DNA from: Pseudeuparius sepicola
Lineage: Eukaryota > Arthropoda > Insecta > Coleoptera > Anthribidae
Assembly (NCBI GenBank): GCA_963920635.1
Contig: OY987298.1
Coordinates: forward strand, 1,302,001-1,366,000
Direction of reading: 5' to 3'
DNA: 64,000 bases
This document shows, piece by piece, positions 6,618 to 54,113 of this stretch. A program made the translations under genes and the position numbers. Positions within the stretch are counted from its first letter, which is position 1. Every line of letters begins with the position of its first letter. The notes beneath the pieces were generated by a model. The model worked only from the letters and a program-made list of their open reading frames with translations. It was not told where the DNA came from and ran no database searches.

Positions 6618-6793
6618 TTAAGAGCGTCCTGACACGTCGATCGTTATGGTTGTCGAACTGGGAGTTGTGACGGTGGTTGTTGTTGTGGTTGTTGTTGTGG
6701 TTGAATTTGTTGCCTCGTTGCTTGCGCTGCTGCCTTGTTGTTCGACCGAAGCTGCCATCGCTATCCTCATTGCTTCATCGTAGGACGGAGGAG
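6618..6793 (-). CDS. Shared terminal exon, PPSYDEA plus Thr/Ser-rich tail
   Basis: Read on the minus strand, a ttgttatag acceptor precedes 6793. The exon enters in phase 1 (CT completes an Ala codon with the G that ends exon 10719-10856) and encodes 57 residues to TAA at 6618-6620. It begins PPSYDEAMRIAMAAS, a PPxY motif with the acidic follow-on common in Nedd4-type WW ligands. It continues with a Gln/Ser/Asn segment, ten consecutive Thr codons and ends TITIDVSGRS. There is no membrane segment, so this is the cytosolic tail. Phase and order fit the next exon upstream exactly, and no second copy of this exon was seen on the strand, so I infer that all first exons of the locus share it. The Thr run is coded by mixed ACA/ACC and may vary in length between individuals. 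Confidence 0.85.
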
Positions 6794-7189
6794 CTATAAC
6801 AAAATTGGTCAGTCAGTATCGTTGAAAATAGTAGATTATGTCAGAGGTTGACTGCCGAGATTGAATTGACAAGTAGATGGAGGAGTGTATAGAGAGAAAC
6901 TGGCAGCCAAACTTGAGTAAGTGAAATAGTAAATAAATCAGCTGATTGCGGCAAAAACCACATAACACAAAATAGGTAAAACATCAAACTGTTTGTGCTA
7001 ACTTCTATTTTTTTGTATAAAACGGCGTTGAGTTTTTTTAGTTGGTGTTTGGTTTAATATTTTTATCAGAGAGAAAATGTAATTTAGCTATGTGGCTATA
7101 TTCTCTCTGTTGTAGTTGTTGTAGGTTGTAGATTACAAAAGAAAGAATAGATAGCTTCACAAAACGTCAAGAATTTTACAGAAATGTAT

Positions 7190-8530
7190 CTAAATATTGA
7201 AACACTTACGAATTAAAATACAAAATAGGTATATGTTAAATATCAGAGAGCATATAGAGTTTCTTAAGTTTAGTTTACTTACAAAGCTTCACAAAGCTAT
7301 TTATTCTGTTACCAAACGGAGCGGAAAGAATAAGAATAGTGGGGTTTCTTTTCGTTCGTATTATCTTATTATTAAATATGTAAAGTTTTAAAAATCTTTG
7401 CAGTTTTCCAAGAGATAAGGTGATATTAGAGACAAGTGGATTGCAGCAATAAAAAGGAAAAATTTTGTACTGTCTGCAAGTATTTACTTGCGTTTGTAGT
7501 CAACAATTTATTGAGAGCAATTTCATAGAGAATTTTGGGCAGCGCAAACTTAAAAAGTATGTAATTACTAGTTTTTTATATTTTCCAAGTCATGATAGAA
7601 ACTCTATCAAGGGAAAAACTGGCAAAATATTGTGCTAATGAACCTAGCTCTTCGTAGTCAAAGATGGAAATTGAGGTTCTGGTAACTTTAATAAGCTATT
7701 TATTTGTAATTGTTTTTGTTAAACATTAAAAATTATATAAAAATATGTAAAAGCTACCTGTCTTAGATGTTTTTCCTACTAAATTGAATTTTAAAATTAA
7801 TAAATCAGTTAAGATACCTTTATTTTAAAATAAACTTTTATTTTGGAATTTGTATTTTATTTGTCTCCATTTACTTCCAGGTACATAAAATTTCTAAGTA
7901 AATTTTTTTTTATTATACTTCTTTGAAAACACCTTATTTTCATCTGTTTTATCAATAATGAAAGATGGGGTTTTTCGGGCTAGCGCACGGAAACAGCGCA
8001 TGGAAAAACTTTCCGTGCGCTGAATAAAAATACCGAATATACCTATGGCTTTAAAATAGAAATATACAGCAAAGTAAACTAAACTTAAGAAACTCTCTCT
8101 GCTCTCTGATATTTAACATATACCTATTTTGTATTTTAATTCGTAAGTGTTTCAATATTTAGATACATTTCTGTAATATTCTTGACGTTTTATTCACCTT
8201 ATATGACAATAACTAATTTACAACAAAGCACCTTTGATATAATTTGAGAGTAACCATGGAAAAGCATCATACATACCAAACACTATATTGTCTGCATTGT
8301 TTAGTTTTTGTCAATTAAATTTATTATAATATGGCGATAAAATGTTTTAAGTTTCCGTTTTCATAGAAGTATAATAAAAAATATCGTTCATTACTCGTCC
8401 AGAAATAGATTTTTCCGTGCTTGCATGACTTCCCGTGTTCGGCTGCGCCTCACACGGGAATTTGTCACGCGCGCACGGAAAAATCTTTATTTCCAGACTC
8501 GTAATGAAATATACTATTTTAATTAATTCA
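7190..8530. repeat. Intronic repeat with cgcacggaa hairpins
   Basis: Lies in the intron between the two shared exons. 7197-7285 is inverted at 8080-8190 (gtaagtgtttcaatatttag side). 7975-8025 and 8405-8490 contain inverted pairs built on cgcacggaaa and tttttccgtgc. The 7870-8530 part recurs inverted at 48545-49135. Class unknown; no coding potential supported. Confidence 0.7.
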
Positions 8531-9099
8531 CTACTTTTTTCTGTGCAATTTTTACATAATTGTGATTGAAAACATCGAATTGAACTAGGAAAAAATTCTC
8601 ATTCCTACAAACAAGTCCCGTATGACGGAATACAGATCATACAATAAAGAGAATTACGGAACATGCCCATTAAATTCGCACATTAATATGCAACATCCCT
8701 TTATAACATCCTTTGCCTGAATCAGCTGACACGTTCATTACGCGTCCTTGTCTTACTTATTGCCATTTGAAACCTATCTCTCTCTAGAGTTGGCTGCCCC
8801 AAACAACAATGAAAATCACACCTGTGCGACTTCCATACCATAGTACTTATCAATTCGATGACTGCCGACAACTGGTCGAAGCACAAAAAAGACCTACGAG
8901 TACTCCGAGTAACATATACTATTTTATCTTCAAGCGCATGAAATACCAAGAATCAAGTCAAATCGAGAAACTACTAATTATTTTAGTCTCAAGGTCAGAT
9001 ATTAGTGAGTTTATGAAAATAATCTTTAGAGTGGCCATAGTCGTAAAACCGATAAAGACACGTGCTTAGACAAGGAAAGTGAGAGAACACCGCGCTTGC

Positions 9100-9281
9100 C
9101 TACCCTGCCGTGTATAGATTTTGTTACGTCGTATTGAACGGCGGCCATTTTATATGTGGCAGACAAAGCGAGTACGTTGTGAGTTAATTTCGTGAATTTG
9201 TGAATAAAGTAACAGTAATTAAGGGGAAAATATACTCTTACGATGGTGTCAAAAGCAAGAGCCCAGGATTTCGTTTCGCAG
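9100..9281 (+). promoter_or_regulatory. Possible plus-strand promoter and tiny first exon
   Basis: A locally GC-richer stretch with aacggcggccatttt (YY1-like GCCATTTT) is followed by an ATG at 9243. It encodes MVSKARAQDFVSQ and then meets a good donor (GCAG then GTAAAT) at 9282, giving a 39-base, phase-0 coding stub. No partner exon was found downstream on the plus strand. It could be the start of an unrelated gene, a transposon promoter or chance. Confidence 0.22.
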
Positions 9282-9842
9282 GTAAATATTCGAAAGAAGC
9301 CCTAAAACTTTATTTTTCTCAATATAACTTCTTCAAATTCCTTCTACCTTTTAGTATGATAAAGTGCATTGTTTTGTTTGTAAATAGGGCCAATATAATT
9401 ATTTTTTTAATATCGTTTTTATTGAAAATGTCTTAATTATTGATTATGATAGTTTCATAAAATATGGGCTGGTTTCCATGGGCGTGCATTATTTATTTTA
9501 TTTTGATTGATTCGAAATCTCCGCAAATAAATATGTTTCAGCACTTGACACTAGCTTCACATTTGGGAAATTATCTGCAAATAAATACCAATATTTCAAA
9601 TTACATGTAAGTCGAAATTAACTACCTTTTCATTTTTAACATTTTCATTTATTTATTCGTAGGTTCAAATCCCAGGCCATGCATTTTCTTTTTTTTTTAA
9701 TTATCAACAAAAATATAGATTTTATTAATAATATTGAAAAAAAAGCGAAGTTTACCATCATCCATAATCCATACATACTATTAATATTGATTTTACGAAG
9801 GAAAGTAATTGTTGGTCAGCTTGTTCAGGGTCTCAACAATAT

Positions 9843-10665
9843 AGACCGGGAGATAGTGACAGATTTTTGGACGTGATTTTACTGGCAAAGGGCATTATGT
9901 AGCACATATTCTCACAATAAGGTATGAATCAGAGTGTCATCCTGGGTTCTTCATGTGAAAAACTGAGTTTTCATTCCTTTGAAAAATATGCGTTTTGATA
10001 TGATTTTAGTCAGGCTGCCACGTGTTTTATAATGAACTTCAAAATAGAAAATTCTTCGGAAAACGAGAGGCATACCGTTAGGGTGGGTCCAAAGGGCTAT
10101 TATTGCCACGTGATCTTGTATTTTAATAATTAATTTTTCCACGTTTCTGAATAGGCTGCCAATGAGAAGTATGCAAGTTCTTGTTATGAAAATGCTGAAA
10201 AGAGGATGGCATACCTATTGCGCATGTCCAAGTACTGTTTAAATTTAATGTTATTTAATCATTTAAACGAGTTATTCGATGTAAAGTGTACTTGGACATG
10301 TGCAAACGGTATGCCATCTTTTCTTCAGCAGTTTCATAATAAGAACTTGCATACTTCTCATTGGCAGCCTGTTCAGAAACGTGGAAAAATTACTTATTAT
10401 AATACAAATTCACGTGGCGGTATGCCTATAATTTTATGAGGAATTTTCTATTTTGAACTTCATTATAAAACACATGGCAGCCTGACTAAAATCATATCAA
10501 AACGCATATTTTTCGAATAATTGAAAACTCAGTTTTTCACATGAAGAACCCAGGATGGCACTCTGATTCATACCTTATTATTGTGAGAATATACGCAACA
10601 TAATGCCCTATGAAAGGCATACTGAGTAAAATCACGTCCAAAAATCTGTCACTATCTCCCGGTCT
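9843..10665. mobile_element. Palindromic MITE in the shared-exon intron
   Basis: Left end gaccgggagatagtgacaga is inverted at the right end near 10640-10665, and the two halves are reverse complements almost throughout (gaaaaactgag, ggcagcct, gtatgcc blocks). A half copy lies at 18334-18862. The right end is only about 54 bp from the donor of exon 10719-10856. No transposase is encoded. Confidence 0.85.
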
Positions 10666-10718
10666 AATAGAAAAAATGAAATGTTTCAAAAATGTTAATA
10701 AAATAAAGCGATGTTTAC

Positions 10719-10856
10719 CATCACTATCGTTGTAGCCGGGTGGCTTATTCAAGTCAGCCATGGTGAGGTGGTGTATGGACAGACGACCATCATGGGTTGG
10801 CCATTGCTCGTCCTGTTCGAGTCTTCCACTAATCGTGAAAACGTCATCGCCTTGTG
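10719..10856 (-). CDS. Shared internal exon, acidic segment with PPGY
   Basis: On the minus strand a ttttttgttatag acceptor ends at 10857 and a GTAAAC donor starts at 10718. The 138-base exon is open in one frame throughout: 2 bases, 45 codons, 1 base. It starts QGDDVFTISGRLEQ and ends MADLNKPPGYNDSD, giving a PPxY motif (PPGY) and net negative charge. The incoming phase (CA) matches every first exon of the locus, which each leave one base: T, A, G or C gives Ser, Thr, Ala or Pro. The outgoing G joins CT of the last exon to give Ala and then PPSYDEA. Thus all nine first exons can splice here without breaking the frame. The role (presenting PPxY to WW-domain ligases) is inferred from the motifs, not shown. 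Confidence 0.85.
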
Positions 10857-11039
10857 CTATAACAAAAAAAAGTACATTAATAATTTTTCTATATGGACAA
10901 AAAGGAAAGGTATAGTTGTTTTCATCAAGGCGGCCGTTATAATTTAAACTAAATATTTTTTTTTTCGATTTTTTCTATAGATTTCGTAAGTGGCCATGGA
11001 CAGCAACTTTAGTTTTCGCACCCACCACCAAGGTTAGTT

Positions 11040-11640
11040 TATAGGAAGGTTAGGACCACAGCCGATTCTAGGAAAGTCCTGAAGTTGAGAAAGCTTTGTG
11101 TAGTGCGGGTAGTGCTATCGTCGCCAGATTGCTACGACGAGGCAGTGTGCCTCTGGGTGGAAACAGACAGCCCTAAGTGCTGGCGACAGCTTATTTATAA
11201 ATTTGTTTTGTTTGTGAAAAAATTAAACATTTCTTTAAAAGTTTGAAGTGCAGAATCGTTCCTTTACAATTTTCAAGCCTCAAGATGCCTAGAACCGCCG
11301 AGGGAAGCTAGAACTTAGTTATATACCTGGCTGTAAGTCAAATCGTAATAATAACTTGAAGTAGCTAGGTTTTCTTTGCTTGACGGCAAGCGGTCAACTT
11401 GTAGGTATTCGTTTTGGGCTTTCCAAAGGACGAAAACTTAAGAATAAAATGATTAAGGGCCAATTGCATAGACAAACTAAAGTACCCTCTACAATTAAAG
11501 GAGCTTTCTAACAATCCAACCACTGTTTAGTATTGTTGCAAAAGTTTCTTTACCTAATGTTAAAGTCAAAAGATAATTTAGTTGAATGCATTATCAAATT
11601 GACCCTAACTGCCGTTTCAATCAATACTAACTTTTTCTGC
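11040..11640 (-). repeat. Partial inverted copy of the 1.1-kb dispersed repeat
   Basis: Reverse-complement match to 5560-6115 and 39780-40345 (gaggcagtgtgcctctgggt, gacaaactaaagtacc, gaccctaactgcc). Together with copy 1 it flanks the two shared exons in inverted orientation. Confidence 0.75.
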
Positions 11641-12208
11641 ATACGTGTATGATCATTTTTTAGATCCAACGAAATGCATTTTACATGTAAAATAAGACCC
11701 AAGCCAAAAATTGATTACTAGGATTTATTTGTGTAAGGTCCAGATATATTTTGGGTATACCAATGCCTTACACCTTACACACTAAAGTTTATTTAGAAAT
11801 ATCGCAGGGTAATTATGTAATGACGTCATTGGTCGGACACTGATGTCATTTTGCCTATGAAAATTATGTTGAATGGGCTGTAGTTCAGTCTTCACTTCAC
11901 CCACTTGGTTGGAGCTTGGCCAAAAGTAGATATTTTTACAAAAATATCAACTTTTGTTCCGCATTTAGAAACGGCTATTAACAATGAATTAAGTGTCTAA
12001 ATTTGTCTGCATTTTTTAAAAATAAATTTAAAATCGGTTGGTAGGTAAGCCGGTATACGCTATGCGATAATATATTTTGGATGGTATGGTTTTTATTTAG
12101 TTTTTCAAGTAGTTTTATCGAACGAAATTAGTACAATAGGAAATATTTTAATTTTTCTCACCCTTCCAACACTACAAAAACTACTACTACTACTAAAACT
12201 ACACTACT

Positions 12209-12665
12209 AAAACGAATAAAATAAGTTTAGGTTTTCGTTAAGATAATAATTACGACAAGTTTTTGCAAATTGAAAAGCTTGTCGCGCCAAATGTTGATGA
12301 AAGTAGGTACCTACCAATTAATTTTATTGGACAGTGATTGGCTGATAAGCAAGTACCTACCTATTTGCCAAAGTATGCATTTTTTCTTTACAATTCGCGC
12401 GACAAGCTTTTCAATTTGCAAAAACTTGTCGCAATTTAGAATCGAATTATCTTAACGAAAACCTAAACTTATTTTATTCGTTTTAGTACATGACTTAAAC
12501 CCCTAAACAAAAGCTTGTTTTTAAAAAGGTTTTTATTATTTTCAATTTTATTTTGTGCTTTTTAGTACCTATTTGATTGCCATGTCAGGAGAGTGGTAAA
12601 GAAATTTAATCCGCCATCTTGGGGTGGCCGCCATATTGGATTTCGTATGAAGTCATTCACCTTAT
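12209..12665 (+). repeat. Foldback element copy 2
   Basis: Arms 12209-12290 and 12395-12484 pair (aacgaataaaataagttta outward, cgcgacaagcttttcaattt inward). They are followed by ttttgtgctttttagtacct and ccgccatcttggggtggccg, as in 14835-15720. It ends soon after gaagtcattcacctt, so only one CCATCTTG unit is kept. Confidence 0.85.
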
Positions 12666-13564
12666 TTTTTTCGAAGTGTTAAAATTTCAAAAACAAATCG
12701 ATTTTTTTATGTTCCAAACAAATAGAAATATTGAAATGAATTATTATATAAAATATGACCAGGTAGATAATATCAGCATTATGTGTTAATTTCGTCATTT
12801 CCATGCAACCAGTGGCGGAAGCATCGAATTTTGTATTATGTTAATTCAACGAAAAATATGATATGGATATGAATGAAACTGACTCATACACAATTAAAAA
12901 TCGACCAATAGTATTTTATATTTGCTCTAAATTTAACTACCTAACTCGAAATATGAAAACTTACTATACTTTATACTTCTATCATACCGTAATAAGGACC
13001 AAATTGTTAGTTTACAGATAAATTTTATTGTTGTTGTCAGAAAAATTATCAATTTCATTAAATTTAGGTACCATAAATATTTGTGCTTCTTGTGAGAAAT
13101 GTAAAAATTACAACAGTTTAGATAAAATTACTACGGATAGCACTGGCATTTTTTTAAAATTTCTCAATTGTATGTAGTATTCAGTGCGTATCACTTTAAT
13201 TTGAAACAATAATTAATAATTTTTTAACGGATTGACCTGAATTTTAAATTAAAAATCAGATCAAGTATGTATTTAACAGTGTCAAACAAGCCGTGTAAAT
13301 AAATTTCAAAAAATATGTTTAATTTAATTTCTACTTATTAGGTATTCTTTTTAATTAAGTAAGTAAATTGCAGTAAATTACTTTAATTTGGAGCATGAAG
13401 TAACAAAAAAAATCTGTTTGGGCGAAAATGTTTTTTCTTTGTTTTAGAATTATTAATATGTTGGGTGAATCAGATGCCAATTCAATCTCCAAAAGAAGAC
13501 ACTATAGTTGAGTATTAGTATTAGTAGGCCATGAAATGGTTTATTTTTTATTTGAAAAGAATTA

Positions 13565-14168: not shown

Positions 14169-14246
14169 ATATAGTAGGTAGATATTGTTCTACATGTTTG
14201 ATTTGACAACAAAAATCAGCATGTTTTCTTTTAATTTTGTACTCAC

Positions 14247-14346
14247 ATTTGGCTATCTTGGGTATTCGATCCTTCACATACATGCAATACAAAAATAATA
14301 AAGAAAGTATAACGATAACAAGCACTAGAGTTACAACCGGTGACAT
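14247..14346 (-). CDS. Variable first exon 1: single-pass TM plus short basic tail
   Basis: Encodes 33 residues plus one base, then GTGAGT donor (AAAT then GTGAGT). Residues 4-22 (VVTLVLVIVILSLLFLYCM) form one hydrophobic helix and the tail YVKDRIPKIAK is basic. By the positive-inside rule the N-terminus is outside and the tail is cytosolic. The leftover T joins CA of exon 10719-10856 to give Ser and the shared PPxY tail, about 137 residues in all. The ATG at 14346 is chosen because it directly precedes the helix. The frame is open further upstream but has no other ATG before the GATA site at 14438. No relative is recognised by name. Confidence 0.8.
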
Positions 14347-14437
14347 TCTCAACGTTTTCGCGGTTACTTTTCGTTTGCTGTATTTTCGTCCCCGCCAGTG
14401 CGAAAATGTTGGCCGCACCGTTGTTTTTTCAAAACAT

Positions 14438-14443
14438 GATAAG
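14438..14443 (-). promoter_or_regulatory. GATA site upstream of variable exon 1
   Basis: CTTATC on the transcribed sense strand (tgataagg on plus), 92 bp 5' of the ATG at 14346. Confidence 0.5.
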
Positions 14444-16478: not shown

Positions 16479-16602
16479 TAAAAATTCCTTTTGTGGCCCT
16501 TAGATATCCGAGGTACTTCTCCCTCACTTTGATGCGCCACTGGATGAACAGATAAAGCAAGAACACCAACACCAAAATCACTATGAAAACTTCCACCTGC
16601 AT
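16479..16602 (-). CDS. Variable first exon 2: single-pass TM plus basic tail
   Basis: Encodes 41 residues plus one base (A), then GTGAGT donor. Residues 4-20 (EVFIVILVLVFLLYLFI) form the membrane helix. The tail runs QWRIKVREKYLGYLRATKG and F, and carries eight Lys/Arg. Only MQV precedes the helix, so there is no cleavable signal peptide; this is a signal-anchor of Nout/Cin type. The leftover A plus CA of the shared exon gives Thr. The exon lies 2.2 kb upstream of variable exon 1 with unrelated flanks. A gtt microsatellite (aacaacaac on sense) precedes the ATG. Confidence 0.87.
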
Positions 16603-16742: not shown

Positions 16743-16748
16743 GATAAG
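16743..16748 (-). promoter_or_regulatory. GATA site upstream of variable exon 2
   Basis: CTTATC on the sense strand (ccgataaggagg on plus), 141 bp 5' of the ATG at 16602. Confidence 0.5.
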
Positions 16749-17692: not shown

Positions 17693-17792
17693 CTTGGTTA
17701 GTCTTATCTCTTCCTGAAGAACACACTGAATAAAAAGCATAAAGAGCGATGTACAATCCAACACTTAAGATACAAATAGTCAAAGGATCCAT
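17693..17792 (-). CDS. Variable first exon 3: single-pass TM, short tail
   Basis: Encodes 33 residues plus one base (G), then GTAAAA, a weaker donor than its siblings. Residues 4-24 (LTICILSVGLYIALYAFYSVC) span the membrane; the tail SSGRDKTNQ is short and polar. The leftover G plus CA gives Ala at the junction with exon 10719-10856. Same length as variable exon 1, although the sequence is not alike. A CTTATC site lies 120-125 bp upstream. Confidence 0.8.
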
Positions 17793-17911: not shown

Positions 17912-17917
17912 CTTATC
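17912..17917 (+). promoter_or_regulatory. GATA palindrome upstream of variable exon 3
   Basis: ataagatatcttatc at about 17903-17917 offers GATA cores on both strands, 120 bp 5' of the ATG at 17792. Confidence 0.5.
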
Positions 17918-27152: not shown

Positions 27153-27303
27153 TGTTAATCCTCCTCGCTCTCCTCCCCGCCATGTTCCTAGCCTTCTTAT
27201 TGGCCAAGCATCCGGCATATATGACGCAACACGACACAACTATGCAGAAAGCCACGCTGGCGAGACCGGCAAAGATCAGAGAAGTGGGCGCCGCGTGGTT
27301 CAT
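27153..27303 (-). CDS. Variable first exon 4: Cys-rich TM plus Arg-rich tail
   Basis: Encodes 50 residues plus one base (A), then GTAAGT. MNHAAPT precedes helix 8-30 (SLIFAGLASVAFCIVVSCCVIY), which holds three Cys. The tail CLANKKARNMAGRRARRIN is strongly basic, fixing it in the cytosol. The A plus CA of the shared exon gives Thr. The exon is GC-rich compared with its surroundings. A 1.8-kb transposon sits 60 bp past the donor, and a GATA site lies 80 bp upstream. If spliced to 10719-10856 the intron is about 16.3 kb. Confidence 0.87.
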
Positions 27304-27380: not shown

Positions 27381-27386
27381 CTTATC
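27381..27386 (+). promoter_or_regulatory. GATA site upstream of variable exon 4
   Basis: gtatcttatctgaatg: the sense strand reads AGATAAGATA, the opposite orientation to most of the set, 78 bp 5' of the ATG at 27303. Confidence 0.5.
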
Positions 27387-28982: not shown

Positions 28983-31190
28983 AAAAATTTAGGCCGACAA
29001 GCTAGATTAGTTAGATTATTTTTATACAATTATGTAGACTCTTTAGGTAAAATTTAGCTATTAGAAGAATTATAATTGGTATTGTTAGTGTTTTGTAAAG
29101 TTTTTCCCATAAAAAGATAACAAAAGTGTTTATTAAAAATATTCTCTTCTTGATTAATCCAACACATTTCTAAAAAACACCTCTTATTAAAATATCTTTC
29201 TGATGCAAAAACCCATTGAATGTCCTGTCTGATAAATATGCTGAGATAATGCGCTAATATCAGGTCTTAGTCGCATGGCAGTTTTATGTGAAGAAATTCG
29301 TGCCAAGCTGGACACAAAATAATAATAATAAATTCGTCTTTATTTATATATCACACATATATACATGAATAATGTATAATGTATACATATATGCAGATAA
29401 ACAGATATACATCTATTTATTTCTTATTCGCAAAGAGGGGCGCTTCAGTGGCGAAGTTTAGCATCGCTATTCTACCACACTGAGCCGACACGAACGATGT
29501 TTATTATGTTATTATGTAGGAAAAGAAAAGAAAGGAGGAATACATTGCAAGGTGATATTAAAAGGTAAGTTGAATAATTGAAAAGGGAAGAAAAACAATG
29601 AAAATGAAAATTAGGAAGTTAAAAGATCAGTCCTAACCTGATTCTTAAACTTGTTCAATGAGTAATTTCGGTACGCTGCGGGGAGACTATTGTACAGTGT
29701 AACTGCAATATAAGTGAATGAACATTTGAACTTTGATGAACTATGGTGAGGAATGGTGAGATGATGCGTATTTCTAATATTTATGCGGTGGATTGCATTG
29801 CGTGTAAATAACTTCTCTCTTAAGTATTCCGGTTTGCAAAGAAGCATTAACTTATGCGTAAAAACTAGATAGTGGTACTTGACAAGCCTATCCAATTTGA
29901 GCCATTTCAACTGACAGAAAGCAGCAGAGACGTGGTCGAATTTGCGTAGCCCACAGACAAATCTAATACAACTATTTTGAGCTACTTGTAGCCGATTTTT
30001 GGTACGTGCATGCAGGCATGGAAAGAAAAGAATATCACAGTAGCTGAATACGGATAAAACCAACGCTTCACACAGCTTTTTTCGTAAACTATGGTTAAGA
30101 ATATGTCTATTTAAATACAGGGATCTCAGTCTAGTAAATACCCTCTGTGTTAAAGAATTTGCGTGTTTCAAAAATCTAAGTTTCTCGTCAATAACAACAC
30201 CCAAGATCTTAGCACTGTCAGTAAATTGCAAAACCTGATTGCCTATGCTAATAACAAAACGAGACTTGACATATTCTCTGATGTGGTTACCGCAAAATAG
30301 GGTAAGACTTGATTTAGATGGGTTTATTTCTAGATTATGGTCTAGCGAGAACATGTAGAGATCGTTTAGATCGCTACCAAGATCGGTGACCCCCTGCTGG
30401 ACTGAATCGGCATTAAAAGAATAAACTACCTGGGTGTCATCCGCGAACGACTGGATTCTGGAATGTTGAACACATGAAGGCAGATCGGCGGTGTATATCA
30501 GAAACAGTAGTGGCCCTAGGACAGAGCCTTGTGGCACTCCGGATGTAATTATTTGGGAATCCGATTTGCATTGTTCCAGCTGGACAAATTGGGACCTATT
30601 TATTAAATAGTTAGAAAAGAATTCAACAGCCGTAGAATCAAAGCCGAAATACTTCAGTTTAGTTAGCAAAAGGTGGTGATTAATTTTGTCGAAAGCTTTA
30701 GAGTAGTCGATGGATACCAAGGCAACTGCCATTTTATTATCAAGGTCCCGAAAAATATTATCCGTGAGGTTTAGTAAGGCCGAGGTGGTGCTGAAATTTT
30801 TCCGAAAGCCAGATTGACAATTCGGAAGTACTCCACTTGACTCTACATAATTTAGAATTTGAGTTTGCACAACCTTTTCAATTATTTTGGACAGCAGGGG
30901 TGGGAGACTAATGGGTCTTAACTCAGAAAATACCGTTGGATGAGTTGTTTTAGGTATAGGAACAACTATGGCTTGCTTCCATAAGTCGGGAAAGTACCCT
31001 TGCTCTCAAAACACTAACAATAACAATTATATATAATTCTTCTAATACCTAAATTTTACCTACAGAACCAAATTGTATAAAAATGCAATTATACCTTTTT
31101 TTTATTTTATGTTATCCTGACATGTCAGTCATGCAATAATTTTTAATGAAATGTCACAGTAATCTAACATGTCCGCCTAAATTTTCTAAC
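28983..31190. repeat. Palindromic repeat split by a LINE
   Basis: 28983-29096 (taggccgacaag, atttttatacaattatg, ttgttagtgttttg) is inverted at 31006-31190 (aaaacactaacaataac, ttgtataaaaatgcaa, atgtccgcctaaatt). The LINE copy starts exactly at the inverted ttttg boundary near 31005, so it inserted into, or recombined at, this palindrome. Confidence 0.7.
29319..31005 (-). pseudogene. 5'-truncated non-LTR retrotransposon reverse transcriptase (Jockey/CR1-like)
   Basis: An uninterrupted frame runs from 31005 to the stop near 29611, about 465 codons. It starts within the fingers region: FPDLWKQAIVVPIPK and ELRPISLPPLLSKIIEK are RT motifs 0-2. Next come SIDYSKAFDKINH (motif A), GVPQGSVLGPLLF (motif B) and SFADDTQVV (the FADD catalytic motif C), then LGVVIDEKLRF and the Cys-containing C-terminal region. 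The upstream ORF1, endonuclease and RT start are missing, a TGA abuts the 5' break, and no own promoter remains, so it is a dead-on-arrival copy. The intact frame means it is young. The 3' UTR ends in (TTA)n at 29319-29331 (minus). Confidence 0.88.
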
Positions 31191-38816: not shown

Positions 38817-38964
38817 GATCATTTATGCCTCTAGAACTCCCGTTTAAAGTACCATTTAACATCCTCTCCCTCAACTTGCTTTGCTTTTGAAAGTACATGT
38901 ACAAAATAAATAGCATTGCCAGCACAGTCAAGAACATGAAGTATCCGTCCACGACCAGAGACAT
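38817..38964 (-). CDS. Variable first exon 5: single-pass TM plus basic/Asn-Gly tail
   Basis: Encodes 49 residues plus one base (C), then GTGAGT. MSLVVDG leads into helix 8-25 (YFMFLTVLAMLFILYMYF). The tail starts QKQSKLRERM (basic) and ends LNGTLNGSSRGIND. The NGT and NGS sequons are on the predicted cytosolic side, so they are probably not glycosylated. The C plus CA of the shared exon gives Pro. The frame stays open upstream of the ATG (to near 39018) but that part is outside the expected first exon. GATA site 126 bp upstream. Confidence 0.85.
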
Positions 38965-39089: not shown

Positions 39090-39095
39090 GATAAG
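39090..39095 (-). promoter_or_regulatory. GATA site upstream of variable exon 5
   Basis: cattagataagtagg on plus, CTTATCTAATG on sense, 126 bp 5' of the ATG at 38964. A second GATAAG lies at about 39252. Confidence 0.5.
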
Positions 39096-42083: not shown

Positions 42084-42255
42084 ATTGGTCGACGAATTCA
42101 ACTAATCTCTGCCTGGTTTCCACGCTATTTCCATTACTTATAAATCTTGCTTTACACCTGCTCCATCCCGATGGCCGGCAAAAGCTTATCACAAACAACA
42201 GGAGCAACAGGAAGAACACGGCATACCCAATAATCATCCCGTCCACTGAGTTCAT
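42084..42255 (-). CDS. Variable first exon 6: single-pass TM plus long tail ending EFVDQ
   Basis: Encodes 57 residues plus one base (T), then GTAAGT: the longest of the set. MNSVDG precedes helix 7-26 (MIIGYAVFFLLLLLFVISF). The tail is CRPSGWSRCKARFISNGNSV then ETRQRLVEFVDQ, basic next to the membrane. The T plus CA gives Ser. The last residues, EFVD, are shared with variable exon 9 (IEFVDY), the clearest sequence link between two members. Full product with the shared exons would be about 161 residues. GATA site 119 bp upstream. Confidence 0.87.
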
Positions 42256-42373: not shown

Positions 42374-42379
42374 GATAAG
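42374..42379 (-). promoter_or_regulatory. GATA site upstream of variable exon 6
   Basis: ggcaagataagg on plus, CCTTATCTTGCC on sense, 119 bp 5' of the ATG at 42255. Confidence 0.5.
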
Positions 42380-45170: not shown

Positions 45171-45174
45171 CGAG

Positions 45175-45593: not shown

Positions 45594-45607
45594 GGGGGGG
45601 GGGGGTG
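45594..45607 (+). repeat. Poly-G run
   Basis: About 13-14 consecutive G, unusual in this AT-rich region. A poly-C run lies at 45256-45265. Length may be affected by sequencing or assembly. Confidence 0.8.
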
Positions 45608-46741: not shown

Positions 46742-46901
46742 CTGCTGGCGTACTTGCTGCAAGACTGTCCGGTTGCCGAGACTTGTTTCTAAAACACTTA
46801 TTCGCAAAAATCACATTTATCCAACACAGCAAGCATGTCACCAAGAACAACACCACTAAAACCGTTAAAATGCCCAATGGCAAAATCATGAGGACGTCCA
46901 T
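46742..46901 (-). CDS. Variable first exon 7: TM plus polar tail
   Basis: Encodes 53 residues plus one base (G), then GTAGGA donor, the least standard of the set together with exon 3. MDVL leads directly into helix 5-30 (MILPLGILTVLVVLFLVTCL then LCWINVIF). The tail is ANKCFRNKSRQPDSLAASTP with a final A. The frame would read through the donor to a stop only ten bases later, so the splice is needed for a longer product. The G plus CA gives Ala. Its promoter region shares gtataaagataagat with variable exon 8, so these two are probably recent sisters. Confidence 0.82.
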
Positions 46902-46961
46902 TTTGCTCTAGATTTAACACTGGATATTGCAGCCATAATGTTCGTCACAAAAACGTATAAA

Positions 46962-46967
46962 GATAAG
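46962..46967 (-). promoter_or_regulatory. GATA site upstream of variable exon 7
   Basis: gtataaagataagattcata on plus; the 15 bases gtataaagataagat are identical to those at variable exon 8. 61 bp 5' of the ATG at 46901. Confidence 0.6.
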
Positions 46968-47284
46968 ATTCATAAAAGATTTAGCTGGATTTCTCAACAT
47001 AACCGTTTTCGATTGTGTTACTTTTATTGTTCGACCGAAATAAAAAAAATGGTATTCGTTGCTGTTTAGAAGTGACCCAAAACGTCAAAATACAAAGCGT
47101 GGCCTCAAACTTGTAAAATAATTGCCAACAATTGACAACAAAAGCACGGAGAAAATATACACATTAGTAGTTATTTACCTAAGTAATATTCTTGGTATGT
47201 CTACATTTTTCGACAAATAATATGGCAAATTTGGGAAAAAACATGTCATATCATATCTCGAAAATGACAGCTATCATGATAATC

Positions 47285-48200
47285 CCGATACACTGCTTAA
47301 ACCTAGACCGACACTATATTAAAGACCCGAGCATGGCGTCATATTTCATTGTTGTTTACGGACTGGGGTGGCGCCACTCGACGAAAAAAATGGCGGCTTA
47401 TTATAGGTGATAGGGGGGTATTCTGTAGTTATTGGTATGTCGGTTACTGACGTTTAAAATGTCCCAAATTTTAAATATCCAGATTTATTACGATTTGCCT
47501 TCTTTTTACGGTAACGAATTGTCTTTGCGTCCAGTATTTAGCAGTTTTATCCTATTAACACAGCTTTTTATAGGTTAGATTTGTTTGTGATAACATGAGA
47601 TTTCCATGCACATGAAGAAAATGGTATGCACACTGCACAGACCATTAGGTGAATTTCAGATGAATAAACACTATTTTGGAATTATGGGATGATCTGATCA
47701 ACCAGCTGAAGAAGCAAAAATTCGAGATATTATATTGGAAGAGTATTTTATAACGTATGCAAGAATGAAAATAGAAAATTTTGTTTATAGCTCGAAAGCG
47801 AACCAATAGTCCTCCATATAAAGAAGAAACTGAAAAATCTAATGAGTTTTATGCTTACTTATACACTACAACTAGCCATGGACTTCATTTCAACCAAAAG
47901 GTACCAAATACTCTTGCTTGCTTTTTAGACTCGCTTTTCTTAGAAAATGTGTGGAAATATGCCATGTGAACTTGTCAAATTAGAGGGACATAACAAACAA
48001 ATATTTTATTTTATTTTGGATATTAAATTCGTTGTAACAGACATATTTGCATGTTTTTATTTTATAAAAGATTCTGCGACAATGGTGTTTTAACATTAAA
48101 CCACCGTGTAAATTTGTTTCGTCGTGTGGCGCCAGTGGCGATCGCTCGAACTAGCGCTATGCACAGATCTTTAATATAGTGTTGGTCCAGCTTACGTTTT
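47285..48200. repeat. Repeat with inverted ends around gatctttaatatagtg
   Basis: cgacactatattaaagaccc and gagcatgg at 47310-47340 is inverted at 48165-48195 (gatctttaatatagtgttgg). A related motif (gctcgggtctttaatatagt) is at 26407. The interior is AT-rich with no supported gene. Confidence 0.6.
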
Positions 48201-48544
48201 AAATCAAATAATTAACTGTGTTCGTTTTTGTGGGCCTTTCGAATTGGCACTAAGAGGACACAATGAGGCAGAGGCTTCCGAAAATAAGGGCATATTTCCA
48301 GAATTGGCGAACTTTAGTGCGAATATACTTTAATAACATTTACTCAAACGTTTATGACAACATTGACAACCAAGGTGTACTTTTAAAATTGTGTCTCAGT
48401 TTGTGTTATTTCTCTGGTTATTTTATTCAAAAACAAATTGGTTCAATTCAAAAACTCGTTTAAATCTAACTTTAACAGTCTACATTTTGTGTCTGATGTT
48501 CATTTTTTCTGAGACGTCAGATGCCCATGGAAATAAATAATGCT

Positions 48545-49135
48545 ACTGGAATAGTATATTTCATTAAGAGTCTGGAAATAAAGATTTTTCCGTGCGCGCG
48601 TGACAAATTCACGCAAGCACGGAAAAATCTATTTCTGGACGTGTAATGAACGATATTTTTTATTATACTTCTTTGAAAACGGAAACTTAAAACATTTTAT
48701 CGGCATATTATAATAAATTTAATTGACAAAAAATAAACAATGCAGACAATATAATAGTGTTTGGTATGTACCTATGATGCGTTTCCATGGTTACTTTCAA
48801 ATTATTTTAAAGGTGCTTTGTTGTAAATTAGTTATTGTCAGATAAGGTGAATAAAACGTCAAAAATATTACAGAAATGTATCTAAATATTGAAACACTTA
48901 CGAATTAAAATACAAAATAGGTATATGTTAAATGTCAGAGAGTATATAGAGTTTCTTAAATTTAGTTTACTTTGCTGTATATTTCTATTTTAAAGCCATA
49001 TATTCGGTATTTTTATTCAGCGCACGGAAAATTTTTCCATGCGCTGTTTCCGTGCGCTAGCCCGAAAAACCCCATCTTTCATTATTGCTAAAACAGATGA
49101 AAATAAGGTGTTTTCAAAGAAGTATAATAAAAAGT
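48545..49135 (-). repeat. Inverted copy of the 7870-8530 repeat
   Basis: Reverse complement of the intronic repeat: tagatttttccgtgc arms, gaaacacttacgaattaaaa, cagcgcacggaaaatttttc. The frame at 49039-49509 starts in this repeat and is not a gene. Confidence 0.8.
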
Positions 49136-49872
49136 TTTTTCCTGTAGGTGTTAGTTACGGGCGGTGTGAACTTAGCAGCCAATTTTCTGGCAGCCCAAAA
49201 TTTCTTGGTTTATTTTTTATTAATATTTCTTCATTTTCCAGTTTAATCTGCTTAAAAGGTTTTATCGTAAGTAATATCATAACGGCATCTAATTATTCCG
49301 AAAAAAATCGAAAAGACACGTTGCTAAGTAATATTTTAACAAGAAGCATGAGTGCTTGTGGCAACAAAAATCCGAGTCGAAGACGAGGATTTTTGCACCT
49401 GCACGAATGCATTTTGTTAAAAAAATATTACTTAGCATTGTGTTTTTTTGGATTTTTTTCACAGGAAAAATTAGATGCCCGAATGGTATTTGACAAGACT
49501 ATTTCATGAGTAACAGATTATTCTGCATACACATAGCTTACAAAACATACTTACTACCTATTATACAACAGCTGTCAAGTTTTGCCGCGGGTAAACTCGA
49601 AAAAACTGCTGACAGGTGCTGTCATACAGGTTTTTCATCTAGAAACCATTTGTAATTCAAAATTGCGATTTTGTGATTGGTGAAAATTAAGACGAGGGAA
49701 ATAGTCAGAATAAATCTATAGAAATAAGGAAGGGCGAGAAAATGCCAGAAAATCGGCTGCTAACTTCACACCGGTTTAGTTAGGCGCATTGATTTTTAAA
49801 ATGTCTTCTGGTATTTGGCGCCACCCGTTGAACCACTCATGAGCCGCCACAAAAAAAAATTTGCGAACTTAC

Positions 49873-50020
49873 CTTGCGTAGTATCTGAATATTTTTTCCT
49901 ACAGGAGGTGAACATAATGCCGCAACACTGGACCCAATCTAACCAGTACACCAAACACAATAACGAAACAAATACGACAAAAAACGACACACCGAACGAG
50001 AAATACGAGAAGAGGTACAT
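49873..50020 (-). CDS. Variable first exon 8: aromatic TM plus Cys-rich stub
   Basis: Encodes 49 residues plus one base (G), then GTAAGT. Helix about 7-29 (YFSFGVSFFVVFVSLLCLVY region) is rich in Phe/Tyr. WLDWVQCCGIMFTSCRKKYS follows, with four Cys near the membrane that could be palmitoylated (inference), and ends DTTQ. The G plus CA gives Ala. The GATA-site block is almost the same as that of variable exon 7 although the peptides differ. Confidence 0.87.
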
Positions 50021-50117
50021 TTCATAAAAAAAATATGATACGGTAAGATAGTATAAGTATTCACTGTGTTGCTTTGTGTTATATGCTACATGGGTAAATG
50101 CATAATACAGGTATAAA

Positions 50118-50123
50118 GATAAG
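50118..50123 (-). promoter_or_regulatory. GATA site upstream of variable exon 8
   Basis: ggtataaagataagatataa on plus, 98 bp 5' of the ATG at 50020. Shares 15 contiguous bases with the exon 7 site. Confidence 0.6.
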
Positions 50124-50184
50124 ATATAAAAGGATTTCTGTGGATTTGTTAATACACTGTAAAATTATTGTCAGAGGTACAAAA

Positions 50185-50650
50185 TGGCAACAACATATCT
50201 TTGAGTCAACGAGTTCATGTAGACAAGTATGAAAAATATTCAAAGTTCTCGGCAAGCTTTTATAGAAGGGTTGTCAAGAGGTGGAAAAGGTCGCAGGTTA
50301 ATAATAACACACATTGGAAGCGAAGATATGGATTTCTAGATGGCGGTTTATTAGACTTTCAATACAATTCTACCAAAGATTACCACTAGAAAATGACGGC
50401 CGATGTATTTGAAGAATATTTTCGGCAAATGGTAGAACGGATACCAAATAATTCCATACTTGTAATGGTAAATGGATAATGCAAGTTATCATTCTAGACT
50501 AGTGGAGAAGCTTCCAGCGAGTTCTTGTAGAAGGGGAATATTATTGAATGGCTGAAGGAAGGGCCAAAAAAGAACTTTTAAAAATAGCCAGGCAGCATAG
50601 GTCAGTATTTAAGAAATATGTACTTAGTTCACGAAATTTCAAGGATAATA
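50185..50650 (+). pseudogene. DDE transposase relic (Tc1/mariner-like)
   Basis: Reading frames in order give HWKRRYGFLDGGLLDFQYN, KMTADVFEEYFRQMVERIP, NNSILVMVNG and then, after a stop, a YHSR.VEKLPASSCRRG-type stretch and IIEWLKEGPKKELLKIARQH. The order (ADVFEEYF, then the VMxNx-YHS box that carries the second Asp in active copies, then WLK) is that of insect DDE_3 transposases. The Asp position reads Val-Asn-Gly here and several stops and shifts are present, so it is dead. The N-terminal half is missing. Confidence 0.65.
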
Positions 50651-51039
50651 AATGAATAAACTTTTTATTTTCCTTACCCGACCCTCAACCCAAACAAACC
50701 ATTTTGCAAGTGACTAAAATTACCCTGATTAGACAATTATTATGATTATTTCCCTCATACTGCTTGCATCCGATAAGGTAGCTCCTTCCATAAAAATCCA
50801 ACCAATGATATGCCTCTGCTAGCGATAATTTGCACTAGTGCAATTACCGGTAATTGCATTTGTGCAAATTATCACTTCATTGCTTAGCAACCGCGAATCT
50901 GTTGGACGTACCCACTTCTTAAAGTTTGTGTGTTTTACCCTGTTCTAAATTATGCAGCTTATAAATTATGTTGCGGTATTATTAAGCATTATATCAATGA
51001 ATTTATATAACTAATAACATTAAAATGTTATTAAGAAAA

Positions 51040-51745
51040 CTTGTTCACAATGAAAAACTGGATAGGCGTGAAAGAATTTCAAAAGCCTAGGTATACTTTG
51101 ATTTTTTCTGCTAAAAAATTTAAAACGCATAAAAATCAAAGTAGACCTAGGCTTTTGAAATTCTTTCACACCTATCCAGTTTTTCATTGTGAACAAGTTT
51201 TCTTAATAACATTTTAATGTGAAAGCTACCCAAAGTGCACTTTTCTGAAGAAAAGTGGGAAAAAAATACCAAAAAATCAAGGTAGGCCTAGACTTTCGAA
51301 AGCAAACCTACTCAGTTCTTCATTCTGAACAAGTTTCCTTAATAACATTTTGTCGTAAAACCTACAGAAAAGGCACTTTACTGATTTGAAAAATTAGTTT
51401 TTTCAAAATTCCCAAGGCATACGTGATTTTTCGAAAGTAAAATTATGTCACAAATTAGTTTAAAACCAAGCAGGGCTGATCCCCAGAAGCTCAAATTTCA
51501 ACTCGACATTTTTTTGCCATTTACACCTGACGTGAACTCTATCCGTGGACACACTGTATAAGTTGTATCCAGGAGGGATGTTTCCAGAAAATCGAAAATT
51601 GCAGTCCTGCGCCAATGCGCGGAAACTATAAAACTTATCTAAAATCTGATTGGTCCACCAAATTCCTCTCAAAAAAGTACTATAGTGACGTGAAAACCGC
51701 AACCCTCTTGCTTTAATAATAACCGAGATTTTTGAGAAAAACACC
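51040..51745. repeat. Partial palindromic MITEs
   Basis: 51055-51210 is an inverted pair (gaattcaaaagcctaggta and its complement) followed by diverged repeats of the same arm to 51420. 51540-51745 is one arm of the 23584-25274 family (gcgccaatgcgcggaaacta, attggtccaccaaattcctc). Confidence 0.8.
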
Positions 51746-52344
51746 CAAAATTACTGTTATATCAAATTATATCGATACAATGAATGTGTATGGGGCATTT
51801 AAAGTCACCTCAATACATTTTTCGTATGGGAGACGTGTAAAATTTTGAAAATCTCCGTCTACTGTTAATGTGATTCAGTAATTCAGCCAAAACGTGGTCT
51901 GCTTAATAAAGGCGTTTTCATCCAATCCCTTTTCTTCTTAACTTTTAAGGCACATGATAGCACATGATAGCATACACTTTTCTTTTATTCGGCGCTATTT
52001 TGTAACTACAACTGTCAACACACTTTTGCAAATATTACATAACAGTTCTGCTATAGCAGTATAAGCCTCCCCCACCGAACAGTTGAACTGTGATTGCAGT
52101 TGATTGCTATGCGAAACTGCCGCTTAAAGCATGTATGCTGTTGTTCTCTGTGTCACGTTCAATGCATTTATCCTTGTGGATTGCCATAATAACCCGTGAG
52201 GTCCATTTAAAATACGGCCAGGCGGCCGCGGATAGGAATGAATTATTACTAGACATTAGTAATCTTGACTCCATTAGTAATAATTGGGGAGATTTTGCAT
52301 GATAATATAATTGCATTTTTTTTAAATAATATATTATTAAAAAT

Positions 52345-52570
52345 ACTGAAAATACATCTTGAATCTCTGTTCGCTAAGCACATTTTGGAGACTGGACATA
52401 ATGCAGATATTAATAGTAACTATAAAGTTTTACACATAGAACGATTTAGTAAGCGATTGGACAGTTGGGAGGCTTTGGAGATTTTTAAATATTATAGAGA
52501 AAATAATGTAGAAATTCTTAATGTACAGATTGAAAATGACAGTTCACTGTTTGGGATTCTTTTTGATTAA
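52345..52570 (+). pseudogene. Penelope-like element C-terminal remnant
   Basis: Peptide FAKHILETGHNADINSNYKV then LHIERFSKRLDSWEALEIFK and ILNVQIENDSSLFGILFD, then TAA. The H-x-x-E-T-G-H block followed by KVLHIE..RLDSWEALEI is the end of the GIY-YIG endonuclease domain in Penelope-like elements. RT and most of GIY-YIG are gone. The downstream 52570-53460 is probably its 3' region, as a hammerhead-like motif lies at 53367. Confidence 0.7.
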
Positions 52571-53366
52571 CACAGTACTCTATGTTTGTGACAGTGTAAT
52601 TCAGTGTTTACCACATAGAGGGCGACACTGTCTCACTTTCGCAATGTTTCATACTTTGATTGATGGAGGGCGCTTCCATTTGTTTTTGACTTCGACTTGA
52701 CATATGTAGGGAATGGCCGAATGGCCAATTTACGTCTTTTAAATTGTTAATAATAATTTTTGTCATTATCGCCCTTATTCTTAGTCATCGGTGAGTTGTT
52801 TGTTTTTCTACATTTCCCTTTGATTCAATATATTGGTTTTTCAGTTTACTTCACTTAGTATTTTTGGTTTATATAGTATAATAATAGAAGAAAAAGCTAC
52901 ATAATTAAACAAAGTTTTTTGACCATGATATTCAGATGTAATAAGAATTCAGTTGTTTGAAATTTAACTTATTGTATTCACAGCTTTGTTCTGAAGGTGA
53001 GTACAATGTTTTTCTTTCTAATTAATCTTATTTTTTCCCCTATAATTTCAAATAATTCTTAATATAACCTTACTTTATGACAGGTTGAGAAATAGTACAT
53101 TGGCCCATGTGTAATGCTCTAGAGTTTTAAATTCCTGTTGAATAAAACGAATGGATGTGCAGCCTCCGATATGTAATGTTTGACAAATCTCTAGCTAGTG
53201 CTTATTATCTATGTAAGTATGTTATTGTTTGCCTTAATTGTTGGTATTTAGCAGAAATATTTTTGGATATTTTTTAATTGTAATAATTTTATTTAATGTT
53301 TTTTAAAGTGTTTGACTTTGTCACTTGGGACTGTACTGATCCCTACCATCCCTCTTTTTTAGTGGT

Positions 53367-53404
53367 CTGAAGATGCAAGCAACTTTGTAGCTTGCGAAAC
53401 CGGT
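53367..53404 (+). ncRNA. Hammerhead-ribozyme-like core
   Basis: CTGAAGA, then stem II GCAAGC/GCTTGC with loop aactttgta, then GAAA and CCGG. Matches CUGANGA...GAAA with a perfect six-base stem. It is about 800 bp downstream of a Penelope C-terminus, the known genomic company of such motifs. Stem I/III pairing not settled. Confidence 0.5.
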
Positions 53405-53947
53405 AACCAGAAAAGAACAAATAAAATAGATTTTTAGGTTATACAGACTATTTTATTGCTTTTGCTCTACTTACATCAGTATTTTTGAATCTACTACCTA
53501 TAATGGATGCCTTCCCAAACAATTTAATATATTATTAAACGTTGAAAAAAAAAATGAAATAAATTTGGTGGGTCATTGACTAAATGACCTTATGGAGATG
53601 CCGTGCCTGGGTAGTCTCTTGAATTTATAATGAGAGCAGCATGCTATCAATTCATTTCGAATACACTATAATTTAGCAGCTATGACTTTTAAAATAGAGT
53701 CATTAGTATTGTGTTTTAAGCAGTTAAAACATATTATTAAAAAGAATAATCTGTGTATACTCTAAATACCTCAATAAAACCTTTATTAAATGACAAGATA
53801 ATCCTCATTTAACTGAAATTTTCCACTTTTTTCAATTAAATCTCGATAAATGCCTCGTGTAAGCGTTGCCACATGTTTTTTCTGATATTAACGAAAACTG
53901 TTGTTTAAATTGTTTTCGGGTAATATACATTTTTACGATTTACTCAC

Positions 53948-54113
53948 AATAATCGACAAACTCGATTCTACTCCTCGTTCTCCTATTTCTGTTTCTTCTC
54001 GTTCTAGTAGACTTCCTCTTATATCTTCCATTGCACGTCACTCTAAGTGCGTACGCCAAAACTATCAAAGCAAACGTAACCACGCCCAACCATATCAAGA
54101 GGTCCACAATCAT
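53948..54113 (-). CDS. Variable first exon 9: TM plus very basic tail ending IEFVDY
   Basis: Encodes 55 residues plus one base (T), then GTGAGT. Only MIVD precedes helix 5-23 (LLIWLGVVTFALIVLAYAL). The tail holds RYKRKSTRTRRNRNRRTRSR, the strongest cytosolic anchor of the set, and ends IEFVDY, like variable exon 6. The T plus CA gives Ser. Other ATGs occur upstream in the 5' leader, so initiation at 54113 is inferred from the helix position. A partial duplicate of this exon's 3' end and donor sits at 55813-55845. Confidence 0.87.

What the first reader, a model, noticed from the sequence alone, without database searches (positions are those of the whole stretch)
6618..54113. A variable-first-exon locus: nine different membrane anchors spliced to one PPxY tail
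Seen: nine minus-strand exons, each ATG, a short N-terminus, one hydrophobic helix, a cytosolic stub and a GT donor, with lengths of 100, 124, 100, 151, 148, 172, 160, 148 and 166 bases. Every length is 3n+1, so all nine end in phase 1; for independent exons this has a chance of about (1/3)^8. Only one matching acceptor pair was found on the strand (10719-10856 and 6618-6793), and it continues in frame to PPGY, PPSYDEA and a stop. The peptides are almost unrelated in sequence while the architecture is constant. Established: PPxY motifs bind WW domains (Nedd4-family E3 ligases, among others); clustered variable first exons on a constant region are known from protocadherins and UGT1. Inference: one gene makes at least nine small type-III membrane adaptors that bring the same ligase-recruiting tail to different membrane partners. 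I know of no described locus with this design.
Basis: partly seen in the sequence, partly recalled or inferred. Interest (0 to 1): 0.95.

Follow-up and report, generated by a model that had tools for sequence, protein, structure and literature searches.

The report
Beetle gene with nine interchangeable anchors
A single beetle gene appears to make many small membrane proteins by joining one of at least nine different membrane-anchor exons to one shared tail of the kind that recruits protein-tagging enzymes, and the same layout is annotated but unexplained in other beetles.

Summary
All nine minus-strand exons are at the stated coordinates. An unbiased scan finds 24 GTRAGT donors on that strand; 7 follow a short ATG-plus-helix frame and all 7 are phase 1 (about 0.03 expected per phase). 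First, each of the nine ATGs has a GATA-type site (CTTATC/GATAAG) 66-146 bp upstream: p 1.8e-10, against a best of 2.5e-8 in 4,000 random sets. So each exon probably has its own promoter under one regulator. Second, profile searches listed 128 homologues; every named one is a beetle (24 species), many of them 'uncharacterized protein isoform X..' entries. In 14 of 15 species with several, one identical tail carries different helix-bearing N-termini. Four of nine window exons match first exons of other beetles better than any of 1,800 decoys; five have no clear match. The locus is therefore a real, conserved variable-first-exon gene. Its constant motif (D-x-PP-x-Y-x-E) resembles Commissureless and other Nedd4-type adaptors, but Pfam's Comm cut-off is not met. 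Ligase recruitment and cargo choice by the helices are inference. My literature searches found no description.

The parts
53948..54113 (-). variable first exon 1 (MIVDLLIWLG...RIEFVDY), phase 1 donor
   Evidence: HMM of weevil/leaf-beetle first exons 42.2 bits, 0 of 1800 decoys
49873..50020 (-). variable first exon 2 (MYLFSYFSFG...), phase 1 donor
   Evidence: no clear ortholog
46742..46901 (-). variable first exon 3 (MDVLMILPLG...), phase 1 donor
   Evidence: no clear ortholog
42084..42255 (-). variable first exon 4 (MNSVDGMIIG...VEFVDQ), phase 1 donor; ends like exon 1 (EFVD), perhaps a diverged duplicate
   Evidence: 11.7 bits to the exon-1 group, 4 of 1800 decoys as good
38817..38964 (-). 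variable first exon 5 (MSLVVDGYFM...), phase 1 donor
   Evidence: 35.1 bits, 0 of 1800 decoys
27153..27303 (-). variable first exon 6 (MNHAAPTSLI...), phase 1 donor
   Evidence: 30.2 bits to weevil-type first exons, 0 of 1800 decoys
17693..17792 (-). variable first exon 7 (MDPLTICILS...), phase 1 donor
   Evidence: 7.9 bits to a darkling-beetle group, 9 of 1800 decoys as good
16479..16602 (-). variable first exon 8 (MQVEVFIVIL...), phase 1 donor
   Evidence: 48.8 bits, 0 of 1800 decoys
14247..14346 (-). variable first exon 9 (MSPVVTLVLV...), phase 1 donor
   Evidence: no clear ortholog
10719..10856 (-). first constant exon (138 nt, phase 1 in and out, so skippable in frame): ...DDVFTISGRL..., LSIHHL, NKPPGY
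6618..6793 (-). last constant exon: PPSYDEAM, Thr-rich end, stop
54242..54247 (-). GATA-type site of first exon 1 (-134)
50118..50123 (-). GATA-type site of first exon 2 (-103)
46962..46967 (-). GATA-type site of first exon 3 (-66)
42374..42379 (-). GATA-type site of first exon 4 (-124)
39090..39095 (-). GATA-type site of first exon 5 (-131)
27381..27386 (-). GATA-type site of first exon 6 (-83; GATAAG orientation)
17912..17917 (-). GATA-type site of first exon 7 (-125; GATAAG orientation)
16743..16748 (-). GATA-type site of first exon 8 (-146)
14438..14443 (-). GATA-type site of first exon 9 (-97)

Best explanation
This is a beetle variable-first-exon gene. Each of at least nine promoters starts a transcript whose variable part is a first exon coding a short outer end, one membrane helix and a basic inner stub. 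Each first exon is spliced in phase 1 to the same two constant exons. Every promoter carries a GATA-type site, so the set is probably switched on together in one GATA-controlled tissue; midgut is my guess. The constant tail ends in an extended PY motif (D-x-PP-S/T-Y-D/E-E) that most likely docks a Nedd4-family WW ligase. The exchangeable helices most likely select different membrane cargo, or different compartments, for ubiquitin-dependent sorting. Shown: layout in sequence, phase, relatives in beetles, upstream element. Inferred: separate promoters, ligase binding, cargo choice, tissue.
For: Phase and donor scan. Spliced frame. GATA-type site within 150 bp at 9 of 9 ATGs, at 0 of 9 in the 150 bp after the donors. 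128 homologous proteins; one tail per species in 14 of 15 named species with two or more helix-bearing N-termini; 123 of 128 N-termini have a helix. Junction residue A/S/T/P in 86 of 86, as a phase-1 join to an exon beginning with C requires. 7 of 38 first-exon clusters hold two or more beetle families besides the window. Four window exons match such clusters with 0 of 1,800 decoys as good. 36 reciprocal-best first-exon pairs in seven species pairs, means 0.45-0.82 identity, against 0.27-0.30 for other pairs. More positive charge inside than outside in 9 of 9. D, PP, Y and E of the second PY motif invariant in 81 aligned homologues. AlphaFold: one helix, confident to about residue 30, then a low-confidence linker and a helix starting at the Tyr of the second PPSY. 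P0071, P0082, P0113, P0115 and P0116 come from contigs of at most 1.1-3.3 kb that hold anchor and tail in one frame, which fits spliced RNA.
Against: No reads were available, and NCBI isoforms are predictions. Five window exons (14247, 17693, 42084, 46742, 49873) lack a clear ortholog, and 16 of 38 clusters are single proteins. By my acceptor matrix only 5 of 9 exons lack an upstream AG scoring as well as the true acceptor 6793; 17693, 27153, 49873 and 53948 have one within 100 nt, so a cassette mode is not excluded. In Diabrotica virgifera and undecimpunctata the tail is 99% identical, yet only 3 of 6 listed anchors pair (lists are clustered and capped). Gonioctena has three different tails. 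Two of nine exons also contain the GATA word inside, and the site was checked in this one genome only. For Commissureless, PMC5578492 says that the Nedd4 contact matters at the neuromuscular junction but not for Robo control at the midline, where the same GLPSYDEAL motif is still essential (passages), so such a motif may act without Nedd4. No WW binding was tested.
Confidence: 0.62

Rival explanations
1. The layout is real, but the anchors are interchangeable in function: the variety serves expression (nine promoters), not cargo choice. Helices drift, and only 'one helix and a basic stub' is kept.
For: Within the window the peptides share almost no sequence. Five of nine have no clear ortholog. 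Most clusters are confined to one family, which suggests birth and loss.
Against: Some clusters keep specific residues across families, e.g. the DQIGF...RKY group in 12 species of three families. Between close species first exons are conserved, e.g. Tribolium castaneum/madens mean 0.82 over 7 pairs beside 0.93 for the tail.
Confidence: 0.22
2. The helix exons are cassettes chosen by mutually exclusive splicing after a common untranslated first exon, not separate promoters.
For: Four exons (17693, 27153, 49873, 53948) have an AG within 100 nt upstream of the ATG that scores better than the true acceptor 6793 (98.6, 98.6, 90.1 and 89.8 against 82.0 percentile). One Tribolium model (P0087) strings three anchors in a row.
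Against: The other five have none. A GATA-type site lies close upstream of all nine.
Confidence: 0.14
3. It is a true Commissureless orthologue that has gained variable first exons.
For: Short single-pass protein with a PY motif before an extended PSYDEA motif, as described for Comm (PMC5578492 passages). Weak Comm hits: 2 of 9 window variants with trimmed tails, 13.8 and 14.3 bits, and 6 of 81 homologues, best E 0.0041.
Against: In the window below Pfam's cut-off of 27 bits. More homologues match other membrane models (TMEM52 31, MLANA 24, UL42 23, WBP-1 18, TMEM51 11, RCR 10 of 81).
Confidence: 0.15
4. Independent neighbouring genes whose first exons only look alike, or chance open frames picked by the reader.
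For: Open frames with hydrophobic stretches occur by chance in AT-rich DNA; loose donors give four such frames outside the nine.
Against: 7 of 7 GTRAGT helix frames on the minus strand in one phase; isoform sets under one gene number in other beetles; GATA-type site at 9 of 9.
Confidence: 0.02

Closest known systems
Clustered protocadherins and UGT1A (variable first exons on constant exons; recalled)
   Same: Many promoters, each with its own first exon, joined to one constant 3' part; shared elements at the promoters.
   Different: There the variable exon codes an extracellular or enzyme domain; here it codes the membrane helix itself, and the constant part is only a short PY tail.
Commissureless (Drosophila; PMC5578492, passages)
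   Same: Small single-pass protein; PY motif followed by an extended PSYDEA motif; low conservation outside the motifs.
   Different: Pfam Comm cut-off not met in the window; here one gene makes many anchors on one tail.
PMEPA1/TMEPAI isoforms (PMC7565192, passages)
   Same: PY-motif membrane adaptor whose isoforms differ at the N-terminus over a shared cytoplasmic part.
   Different: Four of five PMEPA1 isoforms share the same membrane helix (isoform c has a truncated one); here the helix differs in every exon.
PRRG4, Ndfip, WBP1L, TMEM127, yeast Rcr1 (PRRG4 and Rcr1 from PMC5578492 passages; Ndfip from PMC8045725 passages; WBP1L and TMEM127 titles and abstract starts only)
   Same: Membrane proteins linked to Nedd4/Rsp5-type ligases.
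   Different: Separate genes, one anchor each, as far as I know (recalled).

Membership tests
Variable-first-exon gene | Several first exons with own ATG and donor, same phase, one shared acceptor | tested here: met
Variable-first-exon gene | Each first exon has its own promoter | tested here: inconclusive
   GATA-type site within 150 bp of 9 of 9 ATGs, but 4 of 9 also have an upstream AG as good as a true acceptor, and no transcript 5' ends were available
Variable-first-exon gene | Transcripts join each first exon to the constant exons | not testable with these tools
   No reads of this species; annotated isoforms in other beetles agree
Commissureless family (Pfam PF15957) | Score above the curated cut-off | tested here: not met
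   Best 14.3 bits against 27 in the window; 6 of 81 homologues at E below 1, best 0.0041 (which lists no bit scores for them)
Commissureless family (Pfam PF15957) | Extended PSYDEA motif preceded by another PY motif | tested here: met
   PPGY then PPSYDEAM in the window; the first motif is lost in Tribolium
Commissureless family (Pfam PF15957) | Cys near the inner end of the helix | tested here: inconclusive
   Cys in or after the helix in 7 of 9; none in 16479 and 38817
Commissureless family (Pfam PF15957) | Removes Robo receptors from the cell surface | not testable with these tools
   needs experiment
Nedd4-type PY membrane adaptor | Cytosolic PPxY behind a membrane helix | tested here: met
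   sequence and charge pattern, homologues, model of one homologue; topology itself is predicted
Nedd4-type PY membrane adaptor | Binds a WW domain and drives ubiquitination of a cargo | not testable with these tools
   needs experiment
PMEPA1 family | Isoforms keep one membrane helix | tested here: not met
   Helix differs in every exon

The most novel reading that the evidence does not exclude
Beetles carry one gene that works as a kit of ubiquitin-ligase adaptors: a GATA-controlled array of promoters, each putting a different membrane helix on one shared Nedd4-docking tail. The helices are exchangeable cargo readers, so one locus sets the surface fate of many different membrane proteins in one tissue.
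Probability: 0.42. Interest if true: 0.88.

Novelty: new variant of a known kind. Interest (0 to 1): 0.78.

Why it matters
Variable first exons are known for outer or enzyme domains, and PY adaptors are known as separate genes (both recalled). Putting the choice into the membrane helix, with one shared ligase-type tail, would be a new way to build adaptor diversity. It would also give a ready set of natural helix variants for the open question of how adaptors such as Commissureless recognise cargo at the membrane. Tribolium castaneum, an RNAi model (recalled), has the gene (LOC664363), so it can be tested there.

Tried and rejected
Single-sequence protein search with one joined variant: 33 candidates, none at E 0.001 or better; a profile of all nine was needed. 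Tail and profile scans of viral contigs found no relative. PDB sequences: two weak hits, E 0.11, taken as chance. Rfam at gathering scores: none. Initiator (TCAGT) and TATA-type words: found upstream of few of the nine ATGs. A bare '9 of 9 share a 6-mer' is not enough by itself: some 6-mer reaches 9 of 9 in 46 of 1000 random 150-bp sets; the rarity-weighted test is the valid one. Exon order compared by eye with a Tribolium composite model (P0087) and a weevil composite (P0041) looked roughly collinear, but the matches were too weak to claim it. Chance frames, private second exons and a plain Comm orthologue were considered and ranked low. Searches for prior description: (one search listed 15 of 2,717 papers).
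Full report
What was checked. The nine exons, the two shared exons and the joined frames are present as described. The minus strand has 24 such donors and 7 hits, all phase 1. The plus strand has 29 donors and 1 hit, phase 0. First-order resamples of the minus strand give 0.01-0.03 per phase, never more than 1 in 100 trials. A looser donor matrix adds the two exons with weaker donors, 17693 and 46742, and also four weak helix frames elsewhere, two per strand. Ten of the eleven exons contain no repeated 20-mer (53948: 7%), although 29% of the window lies in repeated 20-mers.

A shared upstream element. Reading the upstream sequences I noticed CTTATC or its complement GATAAG before each ATG. Counted over 2,078 six-mers it is the top word: 9 of 9 exons within 150 bp, at -66 to -146, with 38 copies in 64 kb; p 1.8e-10 for this word. 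Because the motif was seen before it was tested, I compared it with the best word (of those with 10 or more copies) in 2,000 random ATG sets (best 1.0e-6) and 2,000 random segment sets (best 2.5e-8). None of the nine has it in the 150 bp after the donor; two exons contain it inside; in 1,000 random sets of nine ATGs it occurs at most at 4 of 9. Starting from the motif instead, a scan for motif, ATG 40-260 bp on and a donor returns all nine exons; no frame outside these exons in that list, on either strand, has a helix score above 1.5. The word is the core of GATA-factor sites (recalled). In Drosophila dGATAe regulates many midgut genes (PMC5843246, abstract and passages), which is the basis of my midgut guess; it is not shown here.

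Relatives. One joined variant found nothing at E 0.001. A profile of all nine found 86 proteins with E from 2.4e-21 to 8.1e-8. A wider profile found 201 with E up to 10, of which 120 were listed. The two lists hold 128 different proteins. All that carry a species name are beetles, 24 species, of the families Chrysomelidae, Cerambycidae, Tenebrionidae and Curculionidae (one species of each looked up; the rest recalled). The 81 unlisted hits were not seen, so relatives outside beetles are not excluded. Many are numbered isoforms (up to X14) of one gene, e.g. LOC664363 in Tribolium castaneum, called 'uncharacterized'; others are 'hypothetical' or 'unnamed', and two Zophobas isoforms bear enzyme-like names that look like annotation noise. 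Of 15 named species with two or more helix-bearing N-termini, 14 have one tail each; Gonioctena, with three tails, is the exception. The Tenebrio count includes two proteins assigned by tail alone. 123 of 128 N-termini contain a helix. The residue at the junction is A, S, T or P in 86 of 86, as a phase-1 join to an exon starting with C requires. In the later 42, 39 fit as scored and the three Sitophilus rows fit once my cut is moved one residue. P0082/P0113 and P0115/P0116, whose longest contigs are 1.3-3.3 kb, hold anchor and tail in one frame, which suggests spliced RNA (inference).

Age of the anchors. N-termini were clustered by alignment scores against block shuffles at hand-set thresholds. 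Of 38 clusters, 7 hold two or more beetle families besides the window and 16 are single proteins. The widest has 12 species of three families. Of 18 group models built without the window exons, some gave 48.8 (exon 16479), 42.2 (53948), 35.1 (38817) and 30.2 bits (27153), each with 0 of 1,800 decoys as good. 16479 and 38817 also match each other's groups, so these two are related. 42084 (11.7 bits to the 53948 group, 4 of 1,800) may be a diverged duplicate of 53948, sharing EFVD at the junction. 17693 is doubtful (9 of 1,800), and 14247, 46742 and 49873 have no clear match. In seven species pairs that I chose, 36 reciprocal-best anchor pairs average 0.45-0.82 identity per species pair, against 0.27-0.30 for other pairs; the tail is 0.55-0.99 identical. 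Many listed anchors have no partner (e.g. 3 of 6 pair between the two Diabrotica species, 6 of 13 and 9 between two weevils); the lists are clustered at 90% identity and capped, so absence there is weak evidence. The anchors look constrained but turn over faster than the tail.

How it probably works. Transcription from one of the promoters gives a first exon that is joined forward to 10856, skipping the others. Five of nine exons have no upstream AG as good as the true acceptor 6793; four do, so skipping is not proven by sequence. Charges predict outside N-terminus and inside tail in all nine, by a small margin in some. The model of a Leptinotarsa isoform (P0001, mean pLDDT 65.6) shows one helix that is confident to about residue 30, a low-confidence linker and a helix that begins at the Tyr of the second PPSY. 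Invariant columns in 81 homologues are I-S, H, N-K and D, PP, Y, E of the second PY motif. The second PY motif is therefore the constant one, and a stretch around DIYNIS and LSIDHI of unknown role is also kept. The motif with its acidic extension resembles the GLPSYDEAL of Commissureless, through which (or through PPCY) Nedd4 binds; the same paper says that Nedd4 is not needed for Comm's midline function although the motif is (PMC5578492, passages). I take Nedd4-family recruitment as most likely, and the helices as the part that decides what is brought to it.

Filing. The layout meets the sequence criteria of a variable-first-exon gene. It works like a PY membrane adaptor, but it is not filed as Commissureless: Pfam Comm reaches at most 14.3 of 27 bits in the window, and in the homologues other membrane models match more members. 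PMEPA1 is the nearest isoform-rich PY adaptor that I found, but four of its five isoforms share one helix (PMC7565192, passages). Searches for a description of this gene or design found none (one search showed 15 of 2,717); most subscription papers are outside that library.

Limits. No reads, no other beetle DNA, and the window's own genome could not be searched. The species of the window is unknown; that it is a beetle follows from the homologues. The number of first exons may be higher, since the locus may extend beyond the window's upstream end.

Noticed in passing
window 4390-4550 (+): A terminal exon on the opposite strand with a strong-looking acceptor (TTTTTTTATTTTCTAG|CACGC), phase-1 entry starting with CA, coding RNSDPPPKYEDIIKDA...SSSPPPYTISMSAV and stop: a second PY tail, tail-to-tail with this gene and weakly similar to it (local score 45 against shuffles of about 29 for the window tail and 23 for a weevil tail). 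No Pfam hit. Possibly a sister gene; no helix frame was found on the plus strand before it in the window.
   Followed up: partly
window 10719-10856: The first constant exon is 138 nt, phase 1 on both sides, so it could be skipped in frame, giving anchors with only the PPSY motif.
   Followed up: no
window 1-2783 and 3528-4001: Satellite-like arrays: 11 copies of a 253-bp unit, 99% matching, and 3.9 copies of a 122-bp unit.
   Followed up: no
window 29611-31005 (-) and 59858-61246 (-): Two reverse-transcriptase frames (Pfam RVT_1, 102.7 and 41.1 bits): a LINE-like one and one that I read as Penelope-like (both recalled, not tested further).
   Followed up: partly
P0004, P0008, P0016, P0127 (Gonioctena quinquepunctata): Three different tails in one species (P0004 and P0008 share one), so the locus may be duplicated there.
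   Followed up: no
P0030 (Diabrotica virgifera isoform X1): A 29-residue insert between anchor and tail compared with P0013, as if an extra cassette exon existed.
   Followed up: no
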